Below, piece by piece: positions 71 to 32,260 of a DNA stretch of 37,399 nt. Each line of letters begins with the position of its first letter. The stretch's first letter is position 1. The notes under the pieces were generated by a model that was not told the DNA's origin, did not search any database, and was given only the letters and a program-made list of their open reading frames with translations. The stretch is from positions 1 to 37,399 of the forward strand of contig JAGLTQ010000048.1 of NCBI GenBank assembly GCA_023135195.1. The letters are read 5' to 3'. The translations under genes were made by a program, and so were the position numbers. Source of the stretch: Gammaproteobacteria bacterium (GTDB taxonomy: Bacteria > Pseudomonadota > Gammaproteobacteria > UBA6429 > Thiohalophilaceae).

Positions 71-520
71 ATGATGTCATTTAGACAATTTGCAAAACAT
101 CTAGTCATATTGGTAGGGCTAACTGCCCTTCCAATTTTGTCTAATGCTGGTGATTTGGGGCCTACTCCACCTAAAGCTAAAATGAATTTTTCAGATAACT
201 CCAAATGTGTAAAACCAATTGCTGATATCCGTAGAAATCACATGGAGCTTTTAAAACATAAGCGTGATTTAACTTTACGCGAAGGTGTGCGTACAAAAGA
301 TAATAGTCTGGTTGAATGTATAGATTGTCATATAATACCAAATGAAAAGGGTGAGTTTGCTCGTTTTGGTGAAGATGAACATTTCTGTAGTAGTTGCCAC
401 AACTATGCCGCTGTTAATGTTGATTGTTTCGATTGCCACTCAGACTTACCTGAAGATGCAGCAAAAATTCTTCGTTCAACAAAGAACCCTCATAATATGA
501 CTGAAGGAGGCAAAAAGTAA
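71..520 (+). CDS. dsrJ: DsrJ, periplasmic triheme cytochrome c of the DsrMKJOP complex
   Basis: This 149-aa protein has an N-terminal signal or anchor segment (hydrophobic residues about 10-25) and exactly three CxxCH heme c motifs: CIDCH (83-87), CSSCH (106-110) and CFDCH (119-123). Three hemes and this size are diagnostic of DsrJ, the periplasmic cytochrome of the transmembrane DsrMKJOP complex that links sulfur oxidation in the cytoplasm to the quinone pool and periplasm. Cys46 is the only cysteine outside the heme motifs. DsrJ is known for an unusual His/Cys-ligated heme, so Cys46 is the candidate ligand (inference). A GAGG lies 10 bases before the start, and ATG at 74 is a possible alternative. 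The TAA overlaps the dsrO ATG by one base, which implies translational coupling. Confidence 0.93.
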   Translation: MMSFRQFAKHLVILVGLTALPILSNAGDLGPTPPKAKMNFSDNSKCVKPIADIRRNHMELLKHKRDLTLREGVRTKDNSLVECIDCHIIPNEKGEFARFGEDEHFCSSCHNYAAVNVDCFDCHSDLPEDAAKILRSTKNPHNMTEGGKK

Positions 521-1275
521 TGTCTAACTCTTCAGAGAATACCAATACATACCGCCGACAATTTTTAGCTCAGTCCGCCGCAGTTGCTGGCTTAGCTATT
601 GCGCCTGGTATTGTTTTAAATCAGGTAGCTCATGCGAAATCTGATACTGATAAAGTCACTGATGCTACTCGCTGGGGTATGTTAATCGATACCAACAAAT
701 GTTCAAACGGTTGTACTGATTGTGTTACTGCCTGTAGCGATGAAAATGGTTGGGGTAGCGGCGAAACTCATTCCAGCAAAGAACAACAAGCACAATGGAT
801 TCGCAAAGTAACCGTTACTGATAAACAAACGGGTCATGTTCAATCATTACCTTTAATGTGTCAGCACTGTGAAACTGCTCCATGTGTCGATGTTTGCCCA
901 ACTGGTGCATCAATGAAACGTGAAGATGGTATTGTTTTAGTTGATAAACACATCTGTATCGGTTGTCGTTATTGCATGATGGCTTGCCCATACAAAGCTC
1001 GCTCATTTGTTCATGAAAAACTTGAACTACAAAAGCCGAATGCTCCTCGTGGTATTGGTACTGTAGAAAGCTGCACAATGTGTACTCATCGTGTTGATAA
1101 AGGTCAGGATCCGGCTTGTGTAGAAGCATGTAGTAAAGCAGAACACGGTGCGATGCTCTTCGGTGATTTGAAAGATGCAAACAGTGCAATTTCAATTGAA
1201 TTGAAAAAACATGGCGGCGAACAAATTCGTGCAGATCTCGGTTTAAATACCGGCGTACGTTATCAAGGCCTGTAA
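520..1275 (+). CDS. dsrO: DsrO, Tat-exported four-cluster iron-sulfur protein
   Basis: The 251-aa protein starts with a twin-arginine signal (RRQFL at 12-16, hydrophobic stretch about 18-35, likely cleavage after VAHA near residue 39), so it acts in the periplasm. The mature part carries four cysteine groups of the NrfC/PsrB/HybA family: one beginning at Cys61 (CxxxCxxCxxxC), a CxxCxxxxCxxxCP group, a CxxCxxCxxxCP group, and a final CxxC with a distant C and CxxxC, together binding four [4Fe-4S] clusters. DsrO passes electrons between DsrJ and DsrP. It follows dsrJ with a one-base overlap and precedes dsrP by 41 bases, so all three are co-transcribed. No unusual residues were seen. Confidence 0.95.
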   Translation: MSNSSENTNTYRRQFLAQSAAVAGLAIAPGIVLNQVAHAKSDTDKVTDATRWGMLIDTNKCSNGCTDCVTACSDENGWGSGETHSSKEQQAQWIRKVTVTDKQTGHVQSLPLMCQHCETAPCVDVCPTGASMKREDGIVLVDKHICIGCRYCMMACPYKARSFVHEKLELQKPNAPRGIGTVESCTMCTHRVDKGQDPACVEACSKAEHGAMLFGDLKDANSAISIELKKHGGEQIRADLGLNTGVRYQGL

Positions 1276-1316
1276 TAATATATACCTATTAAAAAATTGG
1301 TAAGAGAATTCTTCAT

Positions 1317-2525
1317 ATGAAAAAAGCAGTTTTCAAACAAATTGACGGTAATAGTATTAACTATTGGATGTTACTTGCCCTTCTTGGCAGTTTTGCTCTA
1401 GCAGCTGTTGGTGCACACTTTTATATGGAACATGGCGGTCATTATGTGACGGGCATGAACAACCAAATCGTATGGGGCTTACCTCACGTATTTGCTGTAT
1501 TCCTTATTGTTGCAGCATCTGGAGCACTTAATGTCGCTTCAATCTCATCCGTATTTAATAAAACTGCTTATAAACCATTAGCACCGCTTTCAACTCTTGT
1601 TGCCATTGCGTTATTGTCTGGTGGTTTAATGGTTCTGGTTCTTGATTTAGGTCGTCCAGATCGTTTAATCGTTGCGATGACGGTTTATAACTTCAAATCT
1701 ATTTTTGCCTGGAACATGATTTTCTACAATGGGTTCTTCCTTATTGTTGGTGTTTATGCCTGGACAATGTTGCAGCGTAATCTGAATAAATACAGCCGCA
1801 TTGCAGGCTTCTCAGCTTTCATCTGGCGTTTAGCATTAACAACAGGAACAGGTTCAATCTTTGGTTTCCTTGTTGCTCGTCAAGCTTATGACGCTGCAAT
1901 CATGGGACCTATGTTTGTTGTTATGTCATTTTCATTTGGTTTAGCGATTTTCTTATTAATCGTGATGGCAACATATAAATGGACAGATCGCCCTCTCGGT
2001 GATGCAACATTTATTCGCTTAAAAAATCTTCTTGGTGTATTTGTTGCTGGTGTACTCTACTTTGTTGTTGCACAACACTTAACAAATTTATACGCTACAG
2101 AACATCATGGTGTAGAAGCCTTTATTCTCAGAGATGGCGGAATTTATACTCAGTTATTCTGGTATGGCCAAATTATTATGGGTGGTTTGATTCCATTAGC
2201 ACTTATCTATCACCCAACGACTGGCAAATCTCGTACAGCAATTTCAATTGCTTCGATATTAATTGTTCTTGGTGGGCTTATTCAAATGTATGTCATCATC
2301 ATTGGTGGTCAGGCATACCCATTAGAATTGTTCCCAGGTAAAGAAGTTTCAAGTTCTTTCTTCGACGGAGTAGTTAATTCATATAGTCCTACTTTAGCAG
2401 AAGCTCTTTTAGGTATTGGTGGCTTTGCTGTGACACTCTTCATGGTTGCCTTTGCTGTTAAAATTATGAAGTTTTTACCAGAGTCTTTAGCTGACGAAGC
2501 TGTTGATCCACATCACACTAAGTAA
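1317..2525 (+). CDS. dsrP: DsrP, NrfD/PsrC-family integral membrane quinone-interacting subunit
   Basis: The 402-aa protein is almost wholly hydrophobic, with about ten transmembrane helices spread over the full length and short polar loops. It starts with a charged cytoplasmic end and finishes with a polar tail rich in Glu, Asp and His. This is the architecture of NrfD/PsrC/DsrP proteins, which exchange electrons with menaquinone or ubiquinone. Position directly after the four-cluster protein DsrO fixes the identity. A purine-rich AAGAGA lies upstream of the ATG. The gene is followed within 25 bases by a terminator-like hairpin, so it may end the highly expressed part of the dsr operon. Confidence 0.93.
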   Translation: MKKAVFKQIDGNSINYWMLLALLGSFALAAVGAHFYMEHGGHYVTGMNNQIVWGLPHVFAVFLIVAASGALNVASISSVFNKTAYKPLAPLSTLVAIALLSGGLMVLVLDLGRPDRLIVAMTVYNFKSIFAWNMIFYNGFFLIVGVYAWTMLQRNLNKYSRIAGFSAFIWRLALTTGTGSIFGFLVARQAYDAAIMGPMFVVMSFSFGLAIFLLIVMATYKWTDRPLGDATFIRLKNLLGVFVAGVLYFVVAQHLTNLYATEHHGVEAFILRDGGIYTQLFWYGQIIMGGLIPLALIYHPTTGKSRTAISIASILIVLGGLIQMYVIIIGGQAYPLELFPGKEVSSSFFDGVVNSYSPTLAEALLGIGGFAVTLFMVAFAVKIMKFLPESLADEAVDPHHTK

Positions 2526-12020: not shown

Positions 12021-12079
12021 TTCCTTTTAAAATCAGGAGAATAACCATCTTAAAATATTTTGCGATATTTTAAGATGGT
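12016..12079 (-). terminator. Tandem hairpins ending the leftward T6SS operon
   Basis: A perfect 15-base stem (12044-12058 with 12065-12079, six-base loop) contains the stop codon of the tonB-like gene. A second stem, CCTGATT with AATCAGG (12016-12038), follows downstream on the minus strand. T-runs are short, so these may stabilise the 3' end as much as terminate. Confidence 0.6.
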
Positions 12080-13005
12080 AAAAACTCAATCGGGAATGTT
12101 ACTGTCACTTTTTGTACTGAATACGAACCAAAGTCAAATCGTTTAATTCGTGCAACCAATCTTGATTCGAGTTTAGGATCATTAAGTTCACTGGATTTAA
12201 TTCTCACTTTCAATACCTTACCAGAGGGGGCAATAGTAATTTCTAAAACGATTTTTCCTTTTAACCCCGGATGTGAACGACGAGCTCGTCTATAAAGAGA
12301 ATGTAATTTACTCTTGTTTTTATCCATAACAAAAATCACATCTTCTTCAGAACGAACATTGTCACCACGTCTGGTTGTTTTATGATTTTTCCCTTTAAAG
12401 CTTCCATTAAGCGCAAGAGATTGCCTAAAGGCAACTTTTTCGGTTTGTGTTAATACCGTTTTACTAACACTTGTAATATATTTATCTTTACTTACACCTC
12501 CGCTTCCCTTTGATGCATTTTTTGTTAAGACACTTTTATTTACCGTTGCCATTTTAAAGGCAGCAGAGCTCCTTTTTACACGTTTACCAACCATCGCATT
12601 AATGGATGAGGTATCCATTAAATCTGATAACTCATTACTTAACGCTAATAAACCGCTAGATTCAGCTTTTTTACGTGCTTTTTTCTGTATCTTGTTAAGA
12701 GGTTTATCTATTTTTGTTTTTTTCTTAACTCGCTTTATAACTTTAGCCAATTGTTTTGGTTTAGGTTTCGGCTTTATCTTGATTATTTTTGGCTTTTCCT
12801 TTTGCAGAATGAATTTTGCCACGCGTTCAGGTACCACTGTGCGAGCTTTTCTTTCTTCTTTTGGAACATTAACCAATGACATCACATAACCGAAGATAAC
12901 CGCTGTAAAAACAACAAAAATACTTAATCTATTAAAATAATTGTCTTGTTTGTTTTCAGGTGTCCAACCTAAAGCGAGGTTTGAATAACTAACCGCTGTC
13001 ATCAT
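12070..13005 (-). CDS. TonB-like energy transducer with AgmX/PglI-type C-terminal domain
   Basis: The 311-aa protein has one transmembrane helix (about 26-46), a Lys-Pro-rich segment (about 65-90, with the KPKPKPK run), a charged periplasmic region, and a C-terminal TonB/AgmX-like domain (about 225-311) containing SHPGLKGKIVLEITIAPSGKV. It would be driven by the adjacent ExbB/ExbD proteins and span the periplasm. I start at ATG 13003-13005, which overlaps the exbD stop as ATGA and has AAAGGG five bases upstream. ATG 13000-13002 is nearly as good. It is the last gene of the leftward T6SS operon. No TonB-dependent receptor is nearby. Confidence 0.8.
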   Translation of the reverse strand: MMTAVSYSNLALGWTPENKQDNYFNRLSIFVVFTAVIFGYVMSLVNVPKEERKARTVVPERVAKFILQKEKPKIIKIKPKPKPKQLAKVIKRVKKKTKIDKPLNKIQKKARKKAESSGLLALSNELSDLMDTSSINAMVGKRVKRSSAAFKMATVNKSVLTKNASKGSGGVSKDKYITSVSKTVLTQTEKVAFRQSLALNGSFKGKNHKTTRRGDNVRSEEDVIFVMDKNKSKLHSLYRRARRSHPGLKGKIVLEITIAPSGKVLKVRIKSSELNDPKLESRLVARIKRFDFGSYSVQKVTVTFPIEFLPS

Positions 13006-13502
13006 CCCTTCCCTTTCGATTTTTGCATAGCAGCAAAAGCAATATGCGTATAATTTGTCTGACGACACGTAGCGAGTATTTTTCTTAACAACTGATAAGA
13101 GATATTCTCGTCTCCCATGATCGTCACCGATCTTCCCTTTTTATTCTTTGAAGAGGAAAGTGATTTAGATGATTGAAATATTAATTCTTTTTCTAAACTC
13201 TTAATAAGAGTCTCATTATCACCAAGCACATCAATAATATTAGACACTTTATTACCTTGAACAATAATACTATCCTGAGTAATAGCTATTAGTAATGTTT
13301 CCTTAGGTGCTTTTTCAGCAATAGATGTGGGCAAACTGATATCTTTACTATTGGGTAACTGTTGTACATTAGAAGAACTAACCAATAGAAAAAACACAAG
13401 AATGGTAAAAATATCCATTAAAGAAACGAGATTAAGAGCCCCCAGTTTATTACGCTTATGATTACGTTCCATTCTTCTGGCACGACGAGACATTGTCATC
13501 AT
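13002..13502 (-). CDS. ExbD/TolR-family protein with the conserved Asp (second of two)
   Basis: The 166-aa protein has a basic cytoplasmic N-terminus, one transmembrane helix (about 24-44, NLVSLMDIFTILVFFLL) and a periplasmic domain. Asp30 sits where ExbD and TolR carry the essential proton-binding aspartate. The periplasmic part has a Ser/Lys-rich insertion (SSKSLSSSKNKKG). It overlaps the preceding exbD and the following tonB-like gene by four bases each, so the module is tightly coupled. With ExbB it would form the PMF-driven motor. ATG at 13502, 13499 and 13493 are all possible starts, and the first gives the ATGA overlap. Confidence 0.85.
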   Translation of the reverse strand: MMTMSRRARRMERNHKRNKLGALNLVSLMDIFTILVFFLLVSSSNVQQLPNSKDISLPTSIAEKAPKETLLIAITQDSIIVQGNKVSNIIDVLGDNETLIKSLEKELIFQSSKSLSSSKNKKGRSVTIMGDENISYQLLRKILATCRQTNYTHIAFAAMQKSKGKG

Positions 13503-14044
13503 TTTTTCGTCCCCACTTGTTTTGAATTACCATTATCAATAACAGCATTACTTTCAAGTTCAGGGGCATCGCCAATAGAAATGTTCGGAAATAACTCAAC
13601 AGTTTCTACGGTTGTAAATTGTACAACATCTGCACTTCTTACATGGTCCATCACAGTGATCAGTGTTTTATAGCTGATACCAGGCTCCAACAATAATGAA
13701 ATACTTTTTTCATCAGGGAATCGTGTTTTAATTTCAACAAGCACATCAGTGAATTTCTTCCATTGATTACCGTCATCATTACGTACTAAGCGTTTAATAA
13801 CACCAAGATTAGCATCCTGAACATCAAAACTATTTTTACGTAAAACCAACTCAAGATTTAATTTTATTTTATCTTGTTGATTATTTTTTACATCGAGCGC
13901 AGGTAAATTTAACTCTAATACTGTAATCCTTGAAAATACCGCAGTTATTAACAAGAACGGTACAAGAATAACCATTAAATTCATAAAAGCAGTTATATTT
14001 AGCTCAACAGCAGCTTCAACGCGTTTTTTACCAATTCGTTTCAT
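13499..14044 (-). CDS. ExbD/TolR-family protein with Asp to Asn at the proton site (first of two)
   Basis: The 181-aa protein aligns with ExbD over its single transmembrane helix (about 17-38): ELNITAFMNLMVILVPFLL against the usual INVTPFIDVMLVLL. Asn22 replaces the otherwise essential aspartate, so this subunit alone should not carry protons. The periplasmic domain continues to about 150 and ends with a polar tail. It lies between exbB (10-base gap) and the Asp-containing exbD (four-base overlap). A mixed motor with one protonatable and one non-protonatable subunit is the natural inference. Confidence 0.82.
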   Translation of the reverse strand: MKRIGKKRVEAAVELNITAFMNLMVILVPFLLITAVFSRITVLELNLPALDVKNNQQDKIKLNLELVLRKNSFDVQDANLGVIKRLVRNDDGNQWKKFTDVLVEIKTRFPDEKSISLLLEPGISYKTLITVMDHVRSADVVQFTTVETVELFPNISIGDAPELESNAVIDNGNSKQVGTKK

Positions 14045-14054
14045 AAGTTAACTA

Positions 14055-14672
14055 CTAATCTCTGTCCATTAAATTCAAGCACTTGACTGCTGCCATTTCC
14101 AGGTTATCGACTAAACGTGCCGTTTTCGTTACAAGGTATGAATGAAATAATAATAATGGAATTGCAGCAAGCAAACCGAAAGCTGTTGTGTTCATAGCAA
14201 CAGATATACTTGCAGATAGAAGATCCGCTTTTTCAGCCGGATCGGCTGCTGCAACAGCAGTAAACGCCTGAATCAGGCCAACAATAGTACCAAGCAAACC
14301 AAGTAGCGTAGCTATATTTGCAAATGTTGCAAGATAATGAGTGCGTTCTTCCAGACTAGGAAGAGCTTCCATCATACCTTCTTCCATTGCTGACTCTATC
14401 AACTCCCTTTTTTTGTTAGCACGATGGCGAGCAAAACCATAATTTAACAAAAGTGCCAGAGGGGTTTTTATTGATTCAGTTAAACTCACCGCACGTTGAA
14501 AATCATTTGCCTTAAGCATAGGTACCAATTCACCCCATATTTTTTTCGTACTAGAATCAGTACGTGTCAAATATAGAAACCGTTCTAAGGCAATCGCAAA
14601 ACCAATTGCAAATACAATTAATATCGGATACATAAAAGGACCACCTGTTTGAAAGAATTTTACAAACTCCAT
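14055..14672 (-). CDS. MotA/TolQ/ExbB-family proton channel subunit
   Basis: The 205-aa protein has the three-helix TolQ/ExbB layout: helix 1 near residues 12-32 (GGPFMYPILIVFAIGFAIALERF), a cytoplasmic helical region, helix 2 with the LLGLLGTIVGLIQAF motif, and helix 3 with MNTTAFGLLAAIPLLL, including the Thr that lines the proton path. It would form the pentameric channel around the two ExbD proteins. A strong AGAGGTGA site lies just upstream of the ATG. The gene is 34 bases after the 78-aa gene and in the same direction as the whole T6SS operon. Confidence 0.9.
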   Translation of the reverse strand: MEFVKFFQTGGPFMYPILIVFAIGFAIALERFLYLTRTDSSTKKIWGELVPMLKANDFQRAVSLTESIKTPLALLLNYGFARHRANKKRELIESAMEEGMMEALPSLEERTHYLATFANIATLLGLLGTIVGLIQAFTAVAAADPAEKADLLSASISVAMNTTAFGLLAAIPLLLFHSYLVTKTARLVDNLEMAAVKCLNLMDRD

Positions 14673-14706: not shown

Positions 14707-14943
14707 TTAATTAGTTTCATTAAGTTTATCGATTTTTAAAAATGATAGTACTTTCTCTATAATCGATTCATCTTTTTTAGTTTTTACTTGTTCAATAATT
14801 TTTATACCGTTAAGATCTTCATCAATCAACCTCAACAATTGACTACGCTGTTCACGATATTGCAATAACGATATTCTGTTTTGATAATAGTCATTCGACA
14901 ACGTGCGTAGTGAAGACATGCTTGCTCGAAAATTCATAGTCAT
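14707..14943 (-). CDS. Small hypothetical protein (SHOCT-like helix) coupled to ppkA
   Basis: The 78-aa protein is polar and predicted largely helical, with no transmembrane segment or signal. The segment YYQNRISLLQYREQRSQLL resembles the short oligomerisation helix of SHOCT-type proteins (pattern G/N-x-I-S-x-x-x-Y-x-x-x-R-x-x-L), followed by a LIDEDLNG turn and a Lys/Glu-rich tail. Its ATG overlaps the kinase stop as ATGA, so it is translated with ppkA and may bind the kinase or the ExbB motor (inference). No known T6SS family was recognised. Confidence 0.7.
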   Translation of the reverse strand: MTMNFRASMSSLRTLSNDYYQNRISLLQYREQRSQLLRLIDEDLNGIKIIEQVKTKKDESIIEKVLSFLKIDKLNETN

Positions 14944-17486
14944 TTCCTTTTCTTAATTTCACGTAATACACGAAAACCACTAATACCATCAGCTTTACCA
15001 CTATGATTTAATGCTAAAGTAACATCACATTTATCCATAGCATCTTTGTAAGAACCACCCACAGCAATTAAATTACGACCATTGCCATATACCCATTCTC
15101 GTGCATTACCTAAATAATTAACTATTCCCCAGGGGTTTTGTTTTCCCGTAGTTACTTTAACCAACTCATTTCCTTTTGAAATACCGCGCGTACTCATTTG
15201 ACAGTTTCGATTAGGATCACGTACCGTTCTTTTAGATTTCGCTGCATATATCCATTCATGCTTTGTAGGTAAACGATATTTTTGTCGCGTTTTTTTACTT
15301 AACCATTTCAAATAATTTTTGGCCGTTGAAATCGTTATACCTGTTGCAGGAAGTTTTTTATTAGCAGCTTCTATGCTGCAAGTTTTTGTGTTTTTACAAA
15401 ACTCATTAATTTCTTTTACAGAAACTTCGTATTTACCAAGGGCAAAAGGCTTAATCATTTTATTCCCTGGAATAACAACCAATGAAGGCCCGTAGTTTAT
15501 TCCTTGTAATCGATCACGACATATTGTGCGTTTACCACGAGCTCCTAAGCCTGCAATCGAAATATCGCAAGCATCACGAGGCAAGATCTTTATAGAGGAT
15601 ATAACCCGGTTATGTTTAAAAATACGAGAAGCATATTTTTTAAACTCCGCAGCACGTTCTGGTCTTAACTTACCAATTTGAGCAATACAGGATGAGAGAG
15701 TATTTACAATTTTATTTTCAATTTTTTTATATCTTGATTGGTCTAAAGAACGTATTTTTTTGATTGCCACATCAAAATCACGCATTTTAAGACTACCCTG
15801 ACATTTCAACTGGTGATTTACATTTTTCAAAGCGAGATTAAAGCTATCAAGTTTTTTCTTTTCTTCTTTTTTATTCGCAATACGCAACACTTCACTACTG
15901 CGTTTATTATTTAGAGCAATCGCTTTACTTTTATTATTTCTCTTAATAGCCGAAGATAAAGTTAACTCTGCATTATTTAACTCTTCTTTATCCGAAGTAT
16001 ATCGATATGCGTTTACTATCATCAACTTAACACGGGTAAAACGTTTTTCACTTATATATGCATGGACTTTATTAATATAGAGTCCATATATGTCTTTCTT
16101 TATATTATTTAGCCACTCATCGTCAGTATTGTTTAGCAATGAAGAAACCCCGCTAAATTCATTCCAGATATTTTCTTCCCAATCAATCGAAAAAGTTGGC
16201 TTATTTATGAGTTTGACTATTTCAGCCTGGTATAAATCGAGACGAATCTTGTATTCCAGTTCATTTCGTATGTCGCTTTCAGAATATAACGGGGATTGAT
16301 TATTGGATACCTGTACAAACGCAGCAACACTAACAGCTAAAAACAAAAATAAGGCAGCAATACTCTTAAAGCCAGGTTTATAAACGTAAGTCAGTTCTTT
16401 ATAAAACTGCTCTACTGTCGCAGTTCTATCTTCACGCTTAAAAGCAAGTGATTTTTCAATGGCTTTCCATTGATGCTTTTTAATTCCATTTATTTTATTT
16501 AACTTCAAGCCCCGTTCAAAGGCTTCATCAGCAGGAACTTTATTAAATGGATGTTCGCCTGTAAGAATTTCATAAATCACACAGCCCAATGCATATATAT
16601 CATCACGAACATCCGGGGTTTCACCTTGCAGCATTTCCAGGCTGGCGTAAGCAGGTGTTAAAGCACCCAGGTTTCCAGCATCAAATACAGTCTTGTCATC
16701 ACCTTTATTTTCCAGACTATCTACATTGGCAACTGCTCGAGCAATACCAAAGTCGAAAATCTTCGCCATACTATTGCCGGTTATAAATACATTCCCCGGT
16801 TTAAAATCTGAATGTACAATATTTTCTGCATGAGCATGAATTAATGCCGAACACATGCCATTAATAATTTCCCAGCAATCATCTCGAGACAATCCTGTTG
16901 CCTTATATTGTCGTATTAATTGATCTAATGGTTTTCCTTCCATGTATTCCATGGTCATAAATACGGTATCACCATCACGATCGAAGTCGTAAACTTTTAC
17001 CGTATTTGGATGAGCAATACGTTGTGACTTTCTTGACTCTCGTTGTAAAGAAATAAACGCCTCTGGATGAGACTTAAATTCCTCACTCAATACTTTAATC
17101 GCAACATAAGGATCTCTATCCTGTGCTTCAACTTTCAAACGATCCTTTGCTTTATAGACAATCCCCATTCCGCCGACACCAAGTACCTTTTCCAGCAGAA
17201 AGCGGTCCTTTAGTATTTTATGTTGAGTAGAGTGTTGCTGTTGATTATTTGTTACTGGTGCTGTTGCTGTTGAAGTGTTCTTTTCAGGTGCAATTCGAGT
17301 TGTATCATGATTTGTGTTTTTAACAGCCTGTTTAAATTGAGTAGCATCATTACTATTAGAATCAGTTACTACTTTCTCTCTAATTCGCGTTGCTTCAACA
17401 CCTCTGAAAACTGTTTTATCATCATTATTTTGATGAATATTGTCAGGAATGTTTTTATCGTTATCTTTCATGTCCATATTAATCAT
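14940..17486 (-). CDS. ppkA: PpkA-like Ser/Thr kinase fused to a TagR/FGE-sulfatase-like periplasmic domain
   Basis: The 848-aa protein has a Thr-rich N-terminal tail (1-90) with TVFR, TRIR, TQFK and TTRIA sites. A Hanks kinase domain follows (about 95-365): GVGGMG loop 103-108, Lys131, HSDFKPGN (Asp227) and DFG 245-247. After one transmembrane helix (about 374-394) come a long helical periplasmic region and an FGE-sulfatase fold (about 670-846) with REW, VGGSY and GFRVLRE motifs. The FGE catalytic cysteines are not evident, so it is probably a binding domain. In Pseudomonas, TagR, an FGE-like protein by my recollection, activates PpkA; here the two appear fused. Many periplasmic cysteines suggest disulfides. 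The activation loop repeats DKTVF (Thr266). Confidence 0.88.
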   Translation of the reverse strand: MINMDMKDNDKNIPDNIHQNNDDKTVFRGVEATRIREKVVTDSNSNDATQFKQAVKNTNHDTTRIAPEKNTSTATAPVTNNQQQHSTQHKILKDRFLLEKVLGVGGMGIVYKAKDRLKVEAQDRDPYVAIKVLSEEFKSHPEAFISLQRESRKSQRIAHPNTVKVYDFDRDGDTVFMTMEYMEGKPLDQLIRQYKATGLSRDDCWEIINGMCSALIHAHAENIVHSDFKPGNVFITGNSMAKIFDFGIARAVANVDSLENKGDDKTVFDAGNLGALTPAYASLEMLQGETPDVRDDIYALGCVIYEILTGEHPFNKVPADEAFERGLKLNKINGIKKHQWKAIEKSLAFKREDRTATVEQFYKELTYVYKPGFKSIAALFLFLAVSVAAFVQVSNNQSPLYSESDIRNELEYKIRLDLYQAEIVKLINKPTFSIDWEENIWNEFSGVSSLLNNTDDEWLNNIKKDIYGLYINKVHAYISEKRFTRVKLMIVNAYRYTSDKEELNNAELTLSSAIKRNNKSKAIALNNKRSSEVLRIANKKEEKKKLDSFNLALKNVNHQLKCQGSLKMRDFDVAIKKIRSLDQSRYKKIENKIVNTLSSCIAQIGKLRPERAAEFKKYASRIFKHNRVISSIKILPRDACDISIAGLGARGKRTICRDRLQGINYGPSLVVIPGNKMIKPFALGKYEVSVKEINEFCKNTKTCSIEAANKKLPATGITISTAKNYLKWLSKKTRQKYRLPTKHEWIYAAKSKRTVRDPNRNCQMSTRGISKGNELVKVTTGKQNPWGIVNYLGNAREWVYGNGRNLIAVGGSYKDAMDKCDVTLALNHSGKADGISGFRVLREIKKRK

Positions 17487-17495
17487 TAAAAGTTG

Positions 17496-18299
17496 CTAAT
17501 GATTTACTCCTTGATGAAGTTCAGGTTGAACTTGGTTTGAATTTGTAACATTCACTTCAGAAACACTTTTGACAATAATTATTGAGACGTTATCTGGTGC
17601 ACCATTTTCTAACGATTTTACTATTAGCTGTTTAACAGCATTGTCTGTGTCATGACTACGCATTTGATATTCGATTTCAGCTTCATCAACAGAGTTATAT
17701 AAGCCATCACTGCATAATAAAAAAGTATCTCCAACCTGTACGTTAAAGGCACTAACATCAACATATAACTCATTAGCAGTACCAACAGCTCGAGTTATTA
17801 CATTTCCATCCGGGTGATTTATTGCTTCTTCTTCGGATATCGTTCCCATATCAAGTAATTCCTGTACATGACTATGATCACGAGAAACTTGTTGTAATTG
17901 ATTATTTCTCAACAAATACAACCTCGAATCACCTGCCCATAAACAAATACCAACTTGTCCTTTAATAAGCAAACTAATAACTGTACTGCCTAATATACGG
18001 CCATCGTGCATAATTTGTGAATATTCAAGAATTCGGGTATTTGCATCAATAATTTTATTCTCTATATCATCTACAAAATCATCAAGGTATTCATGTTTCT
18101 CAATTTCAGCTAAAGACGATACGATCATATTGCTTGCAACATCACCCGCTTCATAACCCCCCATCCCATCAGCCACAGCCCATAGCCCCACTTCTGGTTT
18201 GGTCATAATAGAGTCTTCATTAACACTCCTAACCATTCCAACATTTGTATCGGCTGATGTATTCCAATTAATGGGGCGTCTTACAGTAGTGTCACTCAT
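17496..18299 (-). CDS. pppA: PP2C-family protein phosphatase of the T6SS (PppA)
   Basis: The 267-aa protein has the full set of PP2C metal and phosphate motifs: VRSVNEDS, VADGMGGYEAGD, WAGDSRLYLLR, SRDHSHVQ, ITRAVG, LLCSDGLY and APDNVSIIIV. It is soluble. In T6SS threonine-phosphorylation pathways PppA reverses phosphorylation by PpkA on the FHA protein or TssL. The start overlaps the tagF stop by four bases (ATGA), and the kinase gene begins nine bases after its stop, so kinase and phosphatase are co-expressed. The protein is complete with no missing motif. Confidence 0.93.
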   Translation of the reverse strand: MSDTTVRRPINWNTSADTNVGMVRSVNEDSIMTKPEVGLWAVADGMGGYEAGDVASNMIVSSLAEIEKHEYLDDFVDDIENKIIDANTRILEYSQIMHDGRILGSTVISLLIKGQVGICLWAGDSRLYLLRNNQLQQVSRDHSHVQELLDMGTISEEEAINHPDGNVITRAVGTANELYVDVSAFNVQVGDTFLLCSDGLYNSVDEAEIEYQMRSHDTDNAVKQLIVKSLENGAPDNVSIIIVKSVSEVNVTNSNQVQPELHQGVNH

Positions 18300-19048
18300 G
18301 CCTCTTCTCTATACTTTTCAAAGTCATTAATAACATATGGCTGTTGCCAGTTATAGCCTTGCCAATCACCATTTAGCATTGCAGGCATTTTTTGTACACC
18401 GGGTAATCCCTGTGTGCTAAACAAACACGGACTAATACAGTCAGATCCAGATGTTTGCCAAACACTATAACTTTGGAATGTCCTGGTCATAATTGAATCC
18501 AGTAATAAGGGATAAACAGTTGTTATTGACTGCTCCTCAAAACTCATATCAAATTCAAAGCTATCACTATCAGAGTTAAATGCTGCTCGAGAATAGTCAC
18601 TTTGATGTTCCACTTTTTTTCTTTCAAGTTCTGAAATTAATTCATCAATTAAAATTTCTTCATCAAGCGCATTTAAAGCAAGCATTTCAATTTCTTTAAA
18701 CCATGCAGTTTGTAACTGAACATATTCAAAGGGGTTAATGTTCTGAGGAAGCTGTCTCACAATAGTAAACGGATAATAACGACCGACACGATCAATACTC
18801 GGTATCATAACTCCAGCCCAAACATTCTCATCGATAACCCCCGCGGAAAAGACAAAACGCCATAATGGGCTTGTTAAGTAAATGTCTAGCCAGGATTCAC
18901 CTAATTGCTCTTTTGTTCCAGCGATAAAATGTTGTAACCACTCATCCCAAACATTAATGAAAGAAGAAGATAGATTCCTCTGTATGAAGTCACCATGTGC
19001 GGGTAACTTACCAAAAAGACCAATTATGTCTGTGTTAGTACTCATCAA
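18296..19048 (-). CDS. tagF: TagF, T6SS-associated repressor (ImpM family)
   Basis: The 250-aa protein opens with the TagF/ImpM signature GLFGKLPAHGDFIQRNL, followed by the WLQ, SPLWRFVFSAGVI and GVMIPSIDRVGRYYPFTI motifs. TagF represses T6SS after translation by binding the FHA protein and works in parallel with the PpkA/PppA pathway. In Agrobacterium it is fused to PppA; here the two genes are separate but overlap by four bases. The gene starts one base after tssM ends. Full length. Confidence 0.93.
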   Translation of the reverse strand: MMSTNTDIIGLFGKLPAHGDFIQRNLSSSFINVWDEWLQHFIAGTKEQLGESWLDIYLTSPLWRFVFSAGVIDENVWAGVMIPSIDRVGRYYPFTIVRQLPQNINPFEYVQLQTAWFKEIEMLALNALDEEILIDELISELERKKVEHQSDYSRAAFNSDSDSFEFDMSFEEQSITTVYPLLLDSIMTRTFQSYSVWQTSGSDCISPCLFSTQGLPGVQKMPAMLNGDWQGYNWQQPYVINDFEKYREEA

Positions 19049-22602: not shown

Positions 22603-23541
22603 TTAAATACTACTGCCAGATTTAAATCGTTTACCGCTCTGTTCAGGTTTATTGTTCGCGATATCTGTTAACTGTTGTGCTACAGGCGCTGATGATTGAT
22701 ATAACCAATAACGAAAACCCGAATAACTTAATAATAAAACCCCGGTAACCACACTTGCGACAACCCACATTGGAATATACTCAGCAAGTGAATTTTTCAT
22801 GCGTCCTAAACCCTGCCAACTTGGAGATAATGAACGTTCATATTCTCCACGATGATTTCTAATAATTCTAAACAGCTCATCACGTATTTGTTCCAGTGAC
22901 TCTTTGCCACGATGAACAACCCGATATTTTCCTTCGTATCCCAAACTTAAGAATATATAAATCATTTCTAATATAGATAAATTATCCGCAGGCATATCAC
23001 GCATATGATCAAGAATTAAAAAGAACTTTTCTCCACCCGATGTTTCATTATGAAACATGCTTAATAATGTACGTTGAGTCCATGCGCTTTCTGCACCCCA
23101 TGGTGTATTAAGTACAGCCTCATCTAATACGGTACATAAAATATAACGCGCAGATAAAACGACCTCTGGTTTTATCCCCTGCTCTTTCGCTTTTGTCTCA
23201 AACGCTTTTATTTCGTTAACCAAACGTTGATGCAAGCCACCTACATTAGGATGACTCATTGATTTATGTGTTTTCTCAAATACAGCTGTAAGCGTCGATG
23301 CTGCACTAACTAAAGGATTTAAACCTTTTCCTGTACGAAAATAAGCTGCCTGGCTATCGAAAGATGGTGCCGAGTTCGGCTTGTACGCTTGCTGCTGTGG
23401 ACTAGATTCCGGTATTGCTTGATTAACGGGGGCTTGTGCTGGAGCATTACTGCGTCCACTAGGTCGAGGCCGCATAACAGTACGATCTGCTGCACCAGCA
23501 GGTTGGCGAAAAACGGTTTTGTCTGGATTATCTGTAGACAT
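22603..23541 (-). CDS. tssL: TssL (DotU) with an N-terminal phospho-threonine-type tail
   Basis: The 312-aa protein has a DotU domain (about 75-255) and a single transmembrane helix near 262-284 (MWVVASVVTGVLLLSYSGF), with only a short periplasmic end and no OmpA-like peptidoglycan domain. The disordered first 75 residues are rich in Pro, Gln and Ala and carry DKTVFR (Thr9) and DRTVMRP (Thr21). Agrobacterium TssL is phosphorylated near its N-terminus (Thr14) by PpkA and then bound by Fha. The matching motif inside the kinase encoded here makes the same circuit likely. It lies between tssK and tssM as usual. Confidence 0.95.
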   Translation of the reverse strand: MSTDNPDKTVFRQPAGAADRTVMRPRPSGRSNAPAQAPVNQAIPESSPQQQAYKPNSAPSFDSQAAYFRTGKGLNPLVSAASTLTAVFEKTHKSMSHPNVGGLHQRLVNEIKAFETKAKEQGIKPEVVLSARYILCTVLDEAVLNTPWGAESAWTQRTLLSMFHNETSGGEKFFLILDHMRDMPADNLSILEMIYIFLSLGYEGKYRVVHRGKESLEQIRDELFRIIRNHRGEYERSLSPSWQGLGRMKNSLAEYIPMWVVASVVTGVLLLSYSGFRYWLYQSSAPVAQQLTDIANNKPEQSGKRFKSGSSI

Positions 23542-25534: not shown

Positions 25535-27094
25535 TTAACTTTTTGTTTTACGTGCAATCGACAATTTTTGTAATTGCTCTTCATATGCCTGAACAAATTC
25601 ATAGCCAAACAAATGTTGAAATGAGTTATCCATATCATCAACCAATTCATTGTAATAGTGTTTATATGAATCCCAGTTTTTAGCTTTACTCATTCCAGGA
25701 ATTATTCCCGGCTTACTGAATTTCTCAAATCGTTGCTCAAGTACAGCAGGATCAAACCTGTTTAAAACTCCTTTAAAGGCTGTCCTGATTCCAGCTAATA
25801 TTGCAACCTGGTGTTCTGCAATGCCTTCAAAACCTTCTTTTATCGCCTCAACTGGTTTTTTGTACGCGTTTCCATCTTTAAGGAACATGTTTTCAATTGC
25901 ATCGTCTACTGTCGCAGAAAATTTTAATGGGTTATTTTCTACAGGCTGAATCGTTGTTACATTCATACGAAATTCATTTTTTATTGAGCTACGAGAACTC
26001 AAAACCTGCATCATCCCTGTTATTGTTTCACGAACCAATTCACCAACAACTGTATTAATTTCTATTACTTTCTCATCACTCAGGTTGTTTGCATCAAGGC
26101 CAAGCGCTTCAATTAATGATTGCTCATTAGATGTTGATGAACGATTAATGTTTTGTACACTTTTAGACGCTTGTGAAACCTGTGTGTTCTTTTCTATTTG
26201 TCGTTGCAAAGCATCCTTTTGCGCCTGTTTTTTAAGAATTTCAATTTCTGTAAGTATCTTTTCATTCGCTTTTTCTAAAGCACTTTTTTTATCAACGGCA
26301 AGTTTTTCATTAAAAGTATTTACTACGGAAGCTTCATTGCTAGCAAAATCATCTGTATTTATTTCTGGTGGTACGGATGCAAATAAATCACTTTCCCAAT
26401 CTTCCGGGATGGCGCCTGCTTCAATATTAGAATTTGGCCAGCTTACGGCTTGTTGCATTGGATTAGCTTGATCAGATTGACTTGCCGATGAAAAGTAATT
26501 ATTTTCCGGTTGAATTGCTTCTGGTATCTGACGCACATTGTTTAAAGCAGCTAAAGGATCTGTCTCTATTGGAGAAGAGTTAAAAAGTGCATCTGATTGG
26601 GATGAATGAGCTGAAAGTGGACTTGCAAAACTATCTATATTTAAATTTGCAGATGAAAAATAGTCTTGTTCGACAACCTGTTCTATTTGTTGTTCTGCAG
26701 GTTTAGGAATTGAATCGGGTATATTACTTGCGAATGGACCCTGACTTAAATTTTCTGCTTGATCATTTTCTGGCTGCCATACACTGGCCAAAAACTCGTA
26801 ATCACCCAAGGAAAATTTATCTCCATCTTTGAGTGCAATTGTGTTTCCCTTACCAATGGGCTCAGCCGAACCATTTGAAAAAGTACCGTTCGTACTTAAA
26901 TCAGTAATATAGTATTGACCGTTCTCAAAACTGATTTCGCTATGTTGTGATGATATAAAGCGCTCTTCATCTTCAAGCACCCATTCATTCTCAGAACTGC
27001 GCCCAATAGTCCCACCCTGATGAGCAAAGGTATGCGTTGCTTTTGTGTTTACCGCACTATCGGGTAGCTTTACTATAGATATGACTATCGACAT
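25535..27094 (-). CDS. tagH: TagH/Fha, FHA-domain phosphothreonine reader of the T6SS
   Basis: The 519-aa protein begins with an FHA domain (about 25-105) holding the phosphothreonine-binding residues GR (31-32), SSQH (48-51) and NGT (69-71). Residues about 110-260 form a low-complexity linker rich in Gln, Ser and Asn with seven F-(A/S/N)-S motifs. A coiled coil (about 262-305) and the TagH C-terminal helical domain (about 325-515) follow. It should bind the phosphothreonine made by PpkA, plausibly on TssL or the kinase itself. It is the first gene of the leftward operon, with AGGA ten bases before the ATG. Confidence 0.93.
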   Translation of the reverse strand: MSIVISIVKLPDSAVNTKATHTFAHQGGTIGRSSENEWVLEDEERFISSQHSEISFENGQYYITDLSTNGTFSNGSAEPIGKGNTIALKDGDKFSLGDYEFLASVWQPENDQAENLSQGPFASNIPDSIPKPAEQQIEQVVEQDYFSSANLNIDSFASPLSAHSSQSDALFNSSPIETDPLAALNNVRQIPEAIQPENNYFSSASQSDQANPMQQAVSWPNSNIEAGAIPEDWESDLFASVPPEINTDDFASNEASVVNTFNEKLAVDKKSALEKANEKILTEIEILKKQAQKDALQRQIEKNTQVSQASKSVQNINRSSTSNEQSLIEALGLDANNLSDEKVIEINTVVGELVRETITGMMQVLSSRSSIKNEFRMNVTTIQPVENNPLKFSATVDDAIENMFLKDGNAYKKPVEAIKEGFEGIAEHQVAILAGIRTAFKGVLNRFDPAVLEQRFEKFSKPGIIPGMSKAKNWDSYKHYYNELVDDMDNSFQHLFGYEFVQAYEEQLQKLSIARKTKS

Positions 27095-28678: not shown

Positions 28679-29194
28679 ATGGCTGATAGTATTCACGATA
28701 AACTTAAACGAGTACGTAAACCCCGCGTACATATTACATATGACGTAGAAACAAATGGTGCAGTTGCCGAAAAGGAAATTCCCTTTGTAATGGGCGTCAT
28801 GGGTGACTATTCAGGTGACAATACTGAAAATAAAAAGCCCCTTAAAGATCGTAAATTTTCTCAAATTGATCGAGATAACTTTAATGAAGTTATGGGTAAC
28901 GTTGCACCTGTAATTTCTATGAAAGTTGAAAACACACTTGAAGATGATGGTAGTGAAGTTTCAATCGATCTTGCTTTTAAAAGCATGGAAGATTTTGAAC
29001 CCCATAAAATTATCGACAAAGTTGAACCTCTGAAAAAATTACTCGATACTCGTAATAAATTACGTGATTTATTAACAAAAGCAGATCGTTCTGATGATTT
29101 AGAAAAGATTCTGGAAGAAGTATTAAGTAATACAGATGCTATCACTTCACTATCAAGTGAATTAGGCGTTGATGACGACAAGGGTGATAAATGA
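28679..29194 (+). CDS. tssB: TssB (VipA), small contractile sheath subunit
   Basis: The 171-aa protein shows the TssB signature near its start ([21 protein letters not shown], then [14 protein letters not shown]) and the DRDNFNEVM region. The C-terminal helix with [10 protein letters not shown] interlocks with TssC to form the sheath. GAGGTAAAGG lies just upstream. The stop overlaps the tssC start by four bases, which keeps the two sheath subunits in step. Confidence 0.96.
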
Positions 29195-30678
29195 TGGCTA
29201 AGAAACAAGCAGCAGAAGCACAAGAAGCCGAAGCAACGGAAGTCAGTTTCCTTGAACAAGCTATCGGTGCAACTAAACAAACTTCTCGTGATGTAACAGA
29301 AGACCTGTTAAAAACATTAACCAAAGAAGCTATGAGCGGAACGGTTAAATGGGATAAAAACTTAACAGTGACAATCAATTCTGCTATTGCAGCAATTGAT
29401 GAAGCAATGTCAAAACAACTTTCTGCAATTTTACAACATGAAAAATTACAAAAGCTTGAAGGTTCGTGGCGTGGTCTAAATCACCTGGTTATGAATTCAG
29501 AAACGAGTTCACAATTAAAAATTCGTATGCTTAACCTGAGTAAAAAAGAATTATCAAAAGATTTAGAAAAAGCCGTTGAATTTGATCAAAGCCAGACCTT
29601 TAAGAAAATTTACGAAAGTGAATTTGGTACTGCCGGTGGTGAGCCATACGCGGCGCTTATTGGAGATTATGAATTTTCAGGCCATCCGGATGACCTCGAT
29701 TTATTAACGAACATGTCAAATATTGCTGCGGCAGGTTTCTGTCCGTTTATTTCTGCAGCAGCACCTGAAATGTTTGGTTTTGACAGTTTTACTGAACTAT
29801 CTAAACCTCGTGATTTAGAAAAGATCTTTGATTCAGCTGAATATACTAAATGGCGCAGTTTCCGCGACAGTGAAGACTCTCGTTTTGTAACGTTAACAAT
29901 GCCTCGTGTATTAGCACGTTTACCATATGGATCAGCAACTAAGCCTATTGAAGCATTCAACTTTGAAGAAGCAAATATGGATTCAGATGGTCGCCAATTA
30001 GAGAGTGATCATGATGAGTATTGCTGGATGAATGCAGCCTATTCTATGGGTACTACACTGACTAAGTCTTATGCAGAATATGGCTGGTGCACAAGTATTC
30101 GTGGTGCTGAAGGTGGCGGTAAAGTTGAAGGTTTGCCAAGCCACACATTCGTTAGTGATGATGGTGATGTTGATCAGAAATGTCCTACCGAAATTGGTAT
30201 TACAGATCGCCGTGAAGCCGAATTAAGTAAATTAGGTTTCTTGCCATTATGCCATTACAAAAATACAGATTACGCAGTATTTTTTGGTGCGCAAACAACT
30301 CAAAAACCTAAGAAATTTGATGATCCAGATGCAACATCAAATGCTGAAATTTCAGCACGTCTTCCCTACATAATGGCAACATCTCGTATTGCTCATTTCT
30401 TAAAAGTTATGGCACGCGATAAAATTGGTAGCTTTATGGAAGCGTCTGATGCAGAAGAATGGCTAAACCGTTGGATTGCTAACTATGTAAATGGTAGCCC
30501 GGGTGCAAGTGCAGAAATGAAAGCACGCTTCCCATTAGCAGAAGCAAATGTTGAAGTTAAAGAAGTGCCAGGCCAACCAGGTGTATATAGTGCTATTGCA
30601 TGGATGCGTCCCTGGTTACAAATGGAAGAGTTAAGTGCTTCACTTCGCCTTGTAGCGAATATTCCTAAAGCAGGATAA
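29191..30678 (+). CDS. tssC: TssC (VipB), large contractile sheath subunit
   Basis: The 495-aa protein contains the EvpB/VipB core: [64 protein letters not shown] and the C-terminal ARDKIGSF and FPLAEA motifs. With TssB it forms the tail sheath. ATG 29191 overlaps tssB; ATG 29194 is an alternative. A strong hairpin follows the stop codon within ten bases, before the second tssC. Confidence 0.96.
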
Positions 30679-30685
30679 TTAAATT

Positions 30686-30714
30686 AACAGGGGATCTTTA
30701 TAGATCCCCTGTTA
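30686..30714 (+). terminator. Strong hairpin between the two tssC genes
   Basis: AACAGGGGATC (30686-30696) pairs perfectly with 30703-30713 around a six-base loop, extended by one T-A pair. It is followed by ATTTAAAAA rather than a solid T-run. It may partly terminate or protect the tssBC messenger end, lowering expression of the genes downstream relative to the sheath genes. Confidence 0.65.
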
Positions 30715-30733
30715 TTTAAAAAATGGATTTTTT

Positions 30734-32260
30734 GTGTCAGCTTCTAGTAGTCAAACATTACCCTTGCCGTTAAGTGCAGCAATTCCTGCTATAAATTTTG
30801 ATGATATTCTAAATACTCCATCCTATATAACCAATCTTGATGAATTTCTTAATGAAGAGGATGATCTAAAGGCACTATCATATTGGATAATTGAACGTGA
30901 AAATCCTGAACATATAAAATCTAAAGAAAATATTATTAATGCCATTAGTAGAAATATTGCAGACATTGATAATTTAATAAATGACCAGTTAAATGTCATT
31001 ATTCATAATGAAAAACTTCAAAAACTGGAATCTTCATGGCGAGGACTTTGGTATCTGGTTGTTCAGGCTGAAGGTGCTTTAAATATAAAAATAAAAGTTC
31101 TTGATGTCAGTTGGAATGAAATAGTTAAAGATATTGCCCGATCACTTGAATTTGATCAAAGCCAGTTATTCCAAAAAATTTATAGTGAAGAATATGGAAC
31201 ACCAGGCGGTGAACCTTATGGCGTTTTAATTGGTGACTATGAAATAAGTCATCGTATATCAAAGAAACATCCTCATGACGACATTGCAACGCTTGAAGGA
31301 TTGTCTCAGGTTGCAGCAGCCGCATTTGCACCATTTATAGCAGCGGGATCATATGAGTTATTTGGTCTGGATAATTTTTCAGCTTTAGCGACACCATTAA
31401 ATTTACGAACTGTTTTTTCCCAAAAAGAATATTTAAAATGGAATTCATTACGAGAAAAAATTGACTCTCGTTTTATTGGATTAACCGTGCCTAGAATACT
31501 CATGCGGTTACCCTATAGAACAACACCCGGTTCATATAAGGGTGTCTTCTTTTATGAAAAACCTTCATCAAATGAACATAATAACTATCTCTGGGGGAAT
31601 GCAAGCTACGGTTTTGCATCAATACTTATTCGAGAATATGCGAATGTAGGTTGGTTTGGTCATATTAGAGGCGTTCCCAGAAATCAAATTGCAGGAGGCC
31701 TGTTAACAAATTTACCGGTTGATTGCTTTGAAACAGATGCAGAGAACATTGCGCATAAACCTGTAACAGATGTGATTATTTCTGACACCAAAGAACGTGA
31801 GTTAAGTGACCTTGGATTGATACCGCTATGTCAGTGTTATGATATTCCCTTTGCGGCATTTTATAATAACCAATCTTTGCAGAACCCTCAGATTCATGAA
31901 TCAAAAGAAGCTAATATTAACGCTAAATTATCCGGTATGTTACAACATGTGCTGTGTGGTTCACGTATAGCACATTATATAAAAGTAATGATCCGCGACA
32001 AAATCGGTTCGTTTGTAACCGCAAATGATTGTGAAGATTATCTACGTGACTGGCTATTCAAATATACAACAGGACGTGATGATTTAGACTGGGAAGAACA
32101 AGCACGTTACCCATTAAAAGAAGCCGCAGTACAAGTAAAAGAACATCCTTCAAAACCAGGAAGTTATTTGTGTGTTATACATCTAAAACCACATTACCAA
32201 CTTGATCAAATGGTGTCTGAGCTTGAACTCGTAACAGAATTAGCACAATCCGGAAAATAA
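30734..32260 (+). CDS. Second TssC-like protein (ImpD/TssC40 type)
   Basis: The 508-aa protein is a divergent paralogue of the preceding TssC. It shares EKLQKLESSWRGLW, EYGTPGGEPYGVLIGDYE, RFIGLTVPRILMRLPY and RDKIGSF. It has a different 90-residue N-terminus and a longer insert after GDYE (SHRISKKHPHDDI). Agrobacterium has the same order of two TssC proteins (TssC41, TssC40). I assign a GTG start at 30734, since no in-frame ATG occurs upstream; GGA lies six bases before it. It is separated from tssC by a hairpin and followed by tssE after one base. Confidence 0.92.
   Translation: MSASSSQTLPLPLSAAIPAINFDDILNTPSYITNLDEFLNEEDDLKALSYWIIERENPEHIKSKENIINAISRNIADIDNLINDQLNVIIHNEKLQKLESSWRGLWYLVVQAEGALNIKIKVLDVSWNEIVKDIARSLEFDQSQLFQKIYSEEYGTPGGEPYGVLIGDYEISHRISKKHPHDDIATLEGLSQVAAAAFAPFIAAGSYELFGLDNFSALATPLNLRTVFSQKEYLKWNSLREKIDSRFIGLTVPRILMRLPYRTTPGSYKGVFFYEKPSSNEHNNYLWGNASYGFASILIREYANVGWFGHIRGVPRNQIAGGLLTNLPVDCFETDAENIAHKPVTDVIISDTKERELSDLGLIPLCQCYDIPFAAFYNNQSLQNPQIHESKEANINAKLSGMLQHVLCGSRIAHYIKVMIRDKIGSFVTANDCEDYLRDWLFKYTTGRDDLDWEEQARYPLKEAAVQVKEHPSKPGSYLCVIHLKPHYQLDQMVSELELVTELAQSGK

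What the first reader, a model, noticed from the sequence alone, without database searches (positions are those of the whole stretch)
16681..17415. DKTVF threonine motif in the kinase tail, the kinase activation loop and the TssL N-terminus
DKTVFR occurs at kinase residues 23-28 and at TssL residues 7-12 (23506-23523). DKTVFD occurs in the kinase activation loop (264-269). TssL has a second, DRTVMRP (19-25), and the kinase tail adds EATRIR, DATQFK and DTTRIA. Identical hexamers in unrelated disordered tails within one operon suggest a shared phospho-acceptor, read by the FHA domain of TagH. It predicts Thr25 and Thr266 autophosphorylation and Thr9/Thr21 phosphorylation of TssL.
Basis: partly seen in the sequence, partly recalled or inferred. 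Interest (0 to 1): 0.75.

Follow-up and report, generated by a model that had tools for sequence, protein, structure and literature searches.

The report
Shared phospho-threonine tag in secretion operon
A short threonine tag recurs in a bacterial weapon's switch kinase and in the membrane protein it probably marks; the tag is kept across many bacteria wherever the protein that reads phosphorylated threonine still has a working pocket, which suggests a common on-switch that has been shown by experiment in only one species.

Summary
DKTVFR lies in the kinase tail (res 23-28) and TssL tail (7-12), DKTVFD in the kinase activation loop (264-269), DRTVMRP in TssL. Genome-wide, DKTVF occurs five times: these three, plus two in short frames that look non-coding.

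The motif is not local. In the family, TssL D[KR]TVF[RK]Q (13/13) and loop D[KR]TVFDAG (15/15) are invariant; kinase tails carry DxTx(hydrophobic) repeats (77 in 20 tails; 1.1 expected by shuffling). Across Proteobacteria the tag marks TssL tails in kinase-containing clusters (27/53 against 5/57). It also tracks the FHA domain's phospho-Thr pocket: 34/48 clusters with an intact pocket, 0/12 with a lost one (not phylogenetically independent).

Best reading: a general form of the switch shown in Agrobacterium tumefaciens, where PpkA phosphorylates the TssL N-terminal Thr and the Fha FHA domain reads it. Kinase-tail copies are probably autophosphorylated docking sites. The loop copy is less certain, because this kinase is non-RD. 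No phosphorylation or binding was tested.

New here: breadth, co-loss with the FHA pocket, kinase-tail and loop copies, a matching pair in Pseudomonas-like systems (DRTQF in both), and a clade-specific DxTxRRP start on the phosphatase.

The parts
14940..17486 (-). PpkA-like Hanks kinase, 848 aa: disordered tail 1-90, non-RD kinase domain ~95-370, C-terminal FGE-sulfatase-like domain
   Evidence: Pfam PF00069 and PF03781; HSDFKP catalytic loop; AlphaFold2 gives pLDDT under 50 for residues 1-85
17403..17420 (-). DKTVFR, kinase residues 23-28 (Thr25)
17379..17396 (-). EATRIR, kinase residues 31-36 (Thr33)
   Evidence: tail repeats conserved in kind, not in place
17331..17348 (-). DATQFK, kinase residues 47-52 (Thr49)
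17289..17306 (-). DTTRIA, kinase residues 61-66 (Thr63)
16680..16697 (-). DKTVFD in the activation loop, residues 264-269 (Thr266)
   Evidence: T266, F268 and D269 invariant in 18 kinases
22603..23541 (-). TssL (DotU family), 312 aa
   Evidence: PF09850 E 1e-67
23506..23523 (-). TssL site 1, DKTVFR, residues 7-12 (Thr9)
   Evidence: D[KR]TVF[RK]Q in 13 of 13 family orthologues with a readable N-terminus
23467..23487 (-). TssL site 2, DRTVMRP, residues 19-25 (Thr21)
   Evidence: [DE]xT[VI]x[RK]PxP in all 13; the form found most widely outside the family is DxT(hydrophobic)2 followed by PxPGG
25535..27094 (-). TagH: FHA domain (res 29-97) with pThr-pocket residues R32, S48, H51, N69, and T6SS_FHA_C with conserved Thr380 (NVTTIQP)
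   Evidence: Pfam/NCBIfam; pocket conservation; Thr380 column
17496..18299 (-). PppA-like PP2C phosphatase; N-terminus MSDTTVRRP (18273-18299)
   Evidence: [DE]xTxRRP start kept in the same clade
18296..19048 (-). TagF
   Evidence: PF09867, TIGR03373

Best explanation
The D-[KR]-T-[VI]-hydrophobic motif is the phospho-threonine tag of a T6SS threonine-phosphorylation switch. PpkA phosphorylates Thr21 and probably Thr9 in the disordered TssL tail; the FHA domain of TagH binds the phosphothreonine and brings TagH to the TssL-TssM membrane complex to start assembly; PppA reverses it. The repeated motifs in the kinase's own disordered tail are autophosphorylated and serve as multivalent docking sites that gather TagH around the kinase. 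The activation-loop copy is either a further autophosphorylation and docking site, as in the mycobacterial PknB-GarA pair, or reflects the consensus that the active site prefers. Shown here: sequence, conservation, co-occurrence, intact FHA pocket, disorder of the kinase tail. Inferred: every phosphorylation and binding event.
For: All real-gene copies of DKTVF in the held genome lie in these two genes. TssL sites and kinase loop invariant in the family; kinase tails keep the motif while everything else in them changes. TssL tag associated with kinase: 27/53 against 5/57. TssL tag associated with an intact FHA pThr pocket: 34/48 against 0/12, and in clusters without a nearby kinase 7/7 against 0/11. 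FHA pocket R and S intact in 46/47 kinase clusters but 8/21 without a nearby kinase. Experiment in A. tumefaciens: TssL Thr14 (DLPpTVVEI) phosphorylated by PpkA and bound by Fha through R30/S46 (PMC3953482); NLPT[IV]VELT tails in our sample are of that type. PpkA interacts with TssL and its condensates recruit TssL and Fha in A. citrulli (PMC12607579).
Against: No direct evidence of phosphorylation here. About a quarter of kinase clusters lack even a T-hydrophobic-hydrophobic motif in TssL (40/53 have it). Associations are not corrected for phylogeny; the loss-of-pocket group may stem from few events. In S. marcescens Thr438 of Fha was reported as the only PpkA target (PMC6082577), so TssL need not be a substrate everywhere. 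Non-RD kinase makes an activating Thr266 phosphorylation doubtful.
Confidence: 0.68

Rival explanations
1. The motif is the kinase's substrate consensus only. Loop, tail and TssL share it because one active site phosphorylates them; the phosphate acts by changing TssL/TssM directly, and FHA reading concerns mainly the conserved Thr of Fha itself.
For: In A. tumefaciens TssM changes shape without Fha pThr binding (PMC3953482). Matched loop-TssL pentamers are more alike than re-paired ones. TagH has its own conserved Thr380, whose context NVTTIQP lacks the Asp.
Against: The tag is absent from all 12 clusters whose FHA pocket is lost and present in all 7 kinase-poor clusters whose pocket is intact, which points to the reader domain, not only to the writer.
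Confidence: 0.2
2. The activation-loop copy is structural, not a phosphosite: DxTxFDAG is a conserved loop packing element and only resembles the tag.
For: Non-RD catalytic loop (HSD); F268, D269 and most of the following residues are invariant too; VFD is modelled as a short strand; the short Pseudomonas kinases lack the loop Thr though their TssL keeps the tag.
Against: T266 invariant in 18 kinases; DxTxF at the same distance from TPxY in RD-type Pseudomonas-like kinases, where TssL changes with it to DRTQF; the mycobacterial precedent of FHA recruitment by a kinase loop (Villarino 2005, title cited in PMC6213207).
Confidence: 0.4
3. The tag is a phosphorylation-independent short binding motif for another cluster protein (for example TssK or TssM), and correlates with PpkA/Fha only because T6SS subtypes differ as whole units.
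For: Associations are uncorrected for phylogeny; some tagged clusters have no kinase within 10 kb.
Against: The invariant residue is Thr itself; the same tag recurs in the kinase tail; two of five exceptions have a kinase 21 and 32 kb away on the same contig; the equivalent Thr is phosphorylated and FHA-bound in A. tumefaciens.
Confidence: 0.1

Closest known systems
A. tumefaciens PpkA / phospho-TssL Thr14 / Fha switch (Lin et al. 2014, PMC3953482)
   Same: Thr near the TssL N-terminus followed by two hydrophobic residues, cluster-encoded PpkA, PppA, TagF and an FHA protein with intact pThr pocket
   Different: Here the tag is DxT(V/I)x with Asp at -2, occurs twice in TssL and is repeated in the kinase tail and loop; TagH also keeps the Thr that the authors could not find in A. 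tumefaciens Fha
PpkA-Fha threonine phosphorylation pathway of P. aeruginosa, S. marcescens and A. citrulli (reviewed or shown in PMC6082577, PMC12607579)
   Same: Kinase, PP2C phosphatase, FHA protein, TagF in one T6SS cluster; conserved Thr in the Fha C-terminal domain
   Different: Reported substrate there is Fha; TssL and PpkA-tail tags were not described in the papers read
M. tuberculosis PknB activation loop recruiting the FHA protein GarA (Villarino 2005, known through the reference list of PMC6213207)
   Same: FHA protein recruited by the kinase activation loop; TagH FHA matches GarA weakly in the PDB (E 1e-3)
   Different: PknB is an RD kinase controlling metabolism; here the kinase is non-RD, T6SS-linked and carries extra tail copies

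Membership tests
T6SS threonine phosphorylation pathway (PpkA-PppA-Fha) | Hanks kinase, PP2C phosphatase and T6SS FHA protein encoded in one T6SS cluster | tested here: met
T6SS threonine phosphorylation pathway (PpkA-PppA-Fha) | FHA domain with intact pThr-binding residues | tested here: met
   R32, S48, H51, N69 present
T6SS threonine phosphorylation pathway (PpkA-PppA-Fha) | conserved Thr in the Fha C-terminal domain | tested here: met
   Thr380, the only Thr column over 50%; equivalence to P. aeruginosa Fha1 T362 not verified on the reference sequence
A. tumefaciens-type phospho-TssL/Fha switch | Thr in the cytoplasmic N-terminal tail of TssL in a T-hydrophobic-hydrophobic context | tested here: met
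   Thr9 and Thr21
A. tumefaciens-type phospho-TssL/Fha switch | PpkA-dependent phosphorylation of that Thr and phospho-specific Fha binding | not testable with these tools
   needs biochemistry
PknB-GarA-type loop recruitment of an FHA protein | activation-loop Thr at a conserved position | tested here: met
   T266 invariant in 18 kinases
PknB-GarA-type loop recruitment of an FHA protein | RD kinase of the loop-phosphorylation-activated class | tested here: not met
   HSDFKP, non-RD
PknB-GarA-type loop recruitment of an FHA protein | loop autophosphorylation and FHA binding to it | not testable with these tools
   needs biochemistry

The most novel reading that the evidence does not exclude
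T6SS clusters with PpkA use one common phospho-threonine code: the same tag is written on TssL, on a fast-evolving multivalent array in the kinase tail, on the activation loop and, in this clade, perhaps on the phosphatase; one FHA pocket reads all of them and so nucleates the assembly site around the kinase. Tag, pocket and kinase are gained and lost together across Proteobacteria.
Probability: 0.4. Interest if true: 0.75.

Novelty: new variant of a known kind. Interest (0 to 1): 0.6.

Why it matters
Whether TssL phosphorylation is an Agrobacterium peculiarity or a general trigger of T6SS assembly was left open by Lin et al. (2014), who saw the Thr14 region conserved only in Agrobacterium and Rhizobium. 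The DxT(hydrophobic)2 tag names a residue to test in many systems, and its co-loss with the FHA pocket predicts which T6SSs use the switch. The kinase-tail arrays suggest how a kinase could collect FHA proteins into the condensates recently reported in A. citrulli.

Tried and rejected
Chance repeat or recent DNA duplication: rejected (codons differ). Motif confined to this operon: rejected. Motif following the kinase alone: not the full story; among FHA-bearing clusters without a nearby kinase it follows the FHA pocket. Association of kinase with the Fha C-terminal Thr: weak (p 0.13). Co-variation of loop and TssL pentamers: present but small and not phylogeny-corrected. Searches for a published TssL or PpkA-tail motif outside A. 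tumefaciens found none in the held library, which lacks most subscription journals.

Full report
The window is a whole 37.4-kb contig of a gammaproteobacterial draft genome. Its nearest named relatives by TssL are an uncultured Ectothiorhodospiraceae MAG and other gammaproteobacterial MAGs. About two thirds of it is a T6SS cluster. On the minus strand lie the kinase, a PP2C phosphatase, TagF, a TssM-like gene, TssL, TssK- and TssJ-like genes and TagH. TagH, TssL, TagF, the phosphatase and the kinase were identified by Pfam and NCBIfam; the others are named by place and appearance only.

Observation. All named hexamers are present at the stated residues. A degenerate DNA search for DKTVF finds five places in the held genome: kinase tail, kinase loop, TssL, and two short open frames of 54 and 34 codons. 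The TssL site-2 pattern matches once, in TssL. The codons differ between copies.

Orthologous pairs. In same-family genomes TssL site 1 is D[KR]TVF[RK]Q and site 2 is [DE]xT[VI]x[RK]PxP in all 13 copies with a readable N-terminus, and the activation loop is D[KR]TVFDAG in all 15 kinases. The kinase tail always carries DxTx(hydrophobic) repeats or close variants, but number and place change; the reading frame before the kinase domain is about 270 codons longer in G015. In 20 kinase tails there are 77 motifs against 1.06 expected by shuffling, maximum 6. AlphaFold2 leaves residues 1-85 of the window kinase without confident structure. So the repeats look like short linear motifs under selection in a disordered tail.

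Breadth. Eighty named loci found through TssL nearly all carry D[KR]T[VIL](hydrophobic) or a close variant near the TssL N-terminus, from Colwellia and Teredinibacter to Methylococcales and Pseudomonas, although the rest of the tail diverges. That set is biased towards close relatives, so an even sample of 397 proteobacterial genomes was searched with PF09850 and 120 TssL neighbourhoods were read. After removal of near-identical tails (110 left) the strict motif occurs in 27 of 53 clusters with a Hanks kinase within about 10 kb and in 5 of 57 without (p 9e-7); shuffled tails give 0.8 and 0.4. Two of the five exceptions have a kinase on the same contig 21 and 32 kb away. A looser T-hydrophobic-hydrophobic definition gives 40 of 53 in kinase clusters (5.9 shuffled) and 3 of 40 where neither kinase nor FHA is present (2.7 shuffled). 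The looser class includes NLPT[IV]VELT tails, which resemble the proven A. tumefaciens Thr14 site DLPpTVVEI (PMC3953482).

FHA pocket. The Arg and Ser that hold phosphothreonine are intact in 46 of 47 FHA domains from kinase clusters but in 8 of 21 from clusters without a nearby kinase. The relaxed TssL motif is present in 34 of 48 clusters with an intact pocket and in 0 of 12 with a lost pocket. Among clusters without a nearby kinase it is 7 of 7 against 0 of 11. This is the strongest sign that the tag is read as phosphothreonine by the FHA domain. The relaxed definition was widened after looking at the sample; the strict definition gives 26 of 48 against 0 of 12 (p 6e-4). The loss-of-pocket group spans several families but may descend from few events, so the p-values overstate the case.

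Kinase loop. T266, F268 and D269 are invariant in 18 kinases. DxTxF sits the same distance before TPxY in Pseudomonas-like RD kinases of about 1000 residues, where both loop and TssL read DRTQF. Matched loop-TssL pairs are slightly more alike than re-paired ones (p 0.006), again without phylogenetic correction. But the window kinase is non-RD (HSD), a class that, from general knowledge of kinases, usually does not need loop phosphorylation, and short Pseudomonas kinases lack the loop Thr while their TssL keeps the tag.

Other candidate sites. The phosphatase starts [DE]xTxRRP in this clade only. TagH Thr380 (NVTTIQP) is the one strongly conserved Thr of T6SS_FHA_C; it is missing from the Rhizobiaceae-like proteins and from most kinase-less FHA proteins. 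It probably corresponds to the Fha Thr phosphorylated in other species, but that was not checked against the reference sequence.

Mechanism. The most economical reading is the A. tumefaciens switch in general form: PpkA marks TssL, TagH reads it, PppA erases it. Kinase-tail copies would add docking sites and could help explain how PpkA gathers Fha and TssL in condensates in A. citrulli (PMC12607579). All phosphorylation and binding steps are inferred here. Kind: a broader and more elaborate variant of a known switch, not a new kind of system.

Noticed in passing
window 18273-18299 (-), PppA N-terminus: The phosphatase begins MSDTTVRRP; [DE]xTxRRP with Thr at a fixed place is kept throughout the clade around this window and absent outside it. 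It resembles TssL site 2 and may be a further phosphosite or FHA tag.
   Followed up: partly
window 25955-25957 (-), TagH Thr380: Single strongly conserved Thr of T6SS_FHA_C (NVTTIQPxENNPLKFS); missing or replaced in most kinase-less FHA proteins and in Rhizobiaceae-like ones. Candidate equivalent of the phosphorylated Fha Thr of other species.
   Followed up: partly
L180, L181, L186: Pseudomonas-like clusters with DDRTQF both at the TssL N-terminus and in the kinase activation loop, mirroring the DKTVF pair of the window.
   Followed up: partly
L040 (G015): Kinase reading frame about 270 codons longer upstream of the kinase domain, filled with PDxTVMRG-like repeats; possible expanded tag array.
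   Followed up: no
window 29191-32260: Two neighbouring TssC-like genes (495 and 508 aa) that look like paralogues; by eye only.
   Followed up: no
window 12070-14672 (-): Genes resembling ExbB, two ExbD and TonB directly downstream of the kinase, same strand; a possible link to the kinase's periplasmic part was not examined. By eye only.
   Followed up: no
window 71-2525: DsrJ/DsrO/DsrP-like genes, suggesting a sulfur oxidiser; by eye only.
   Followed up: no
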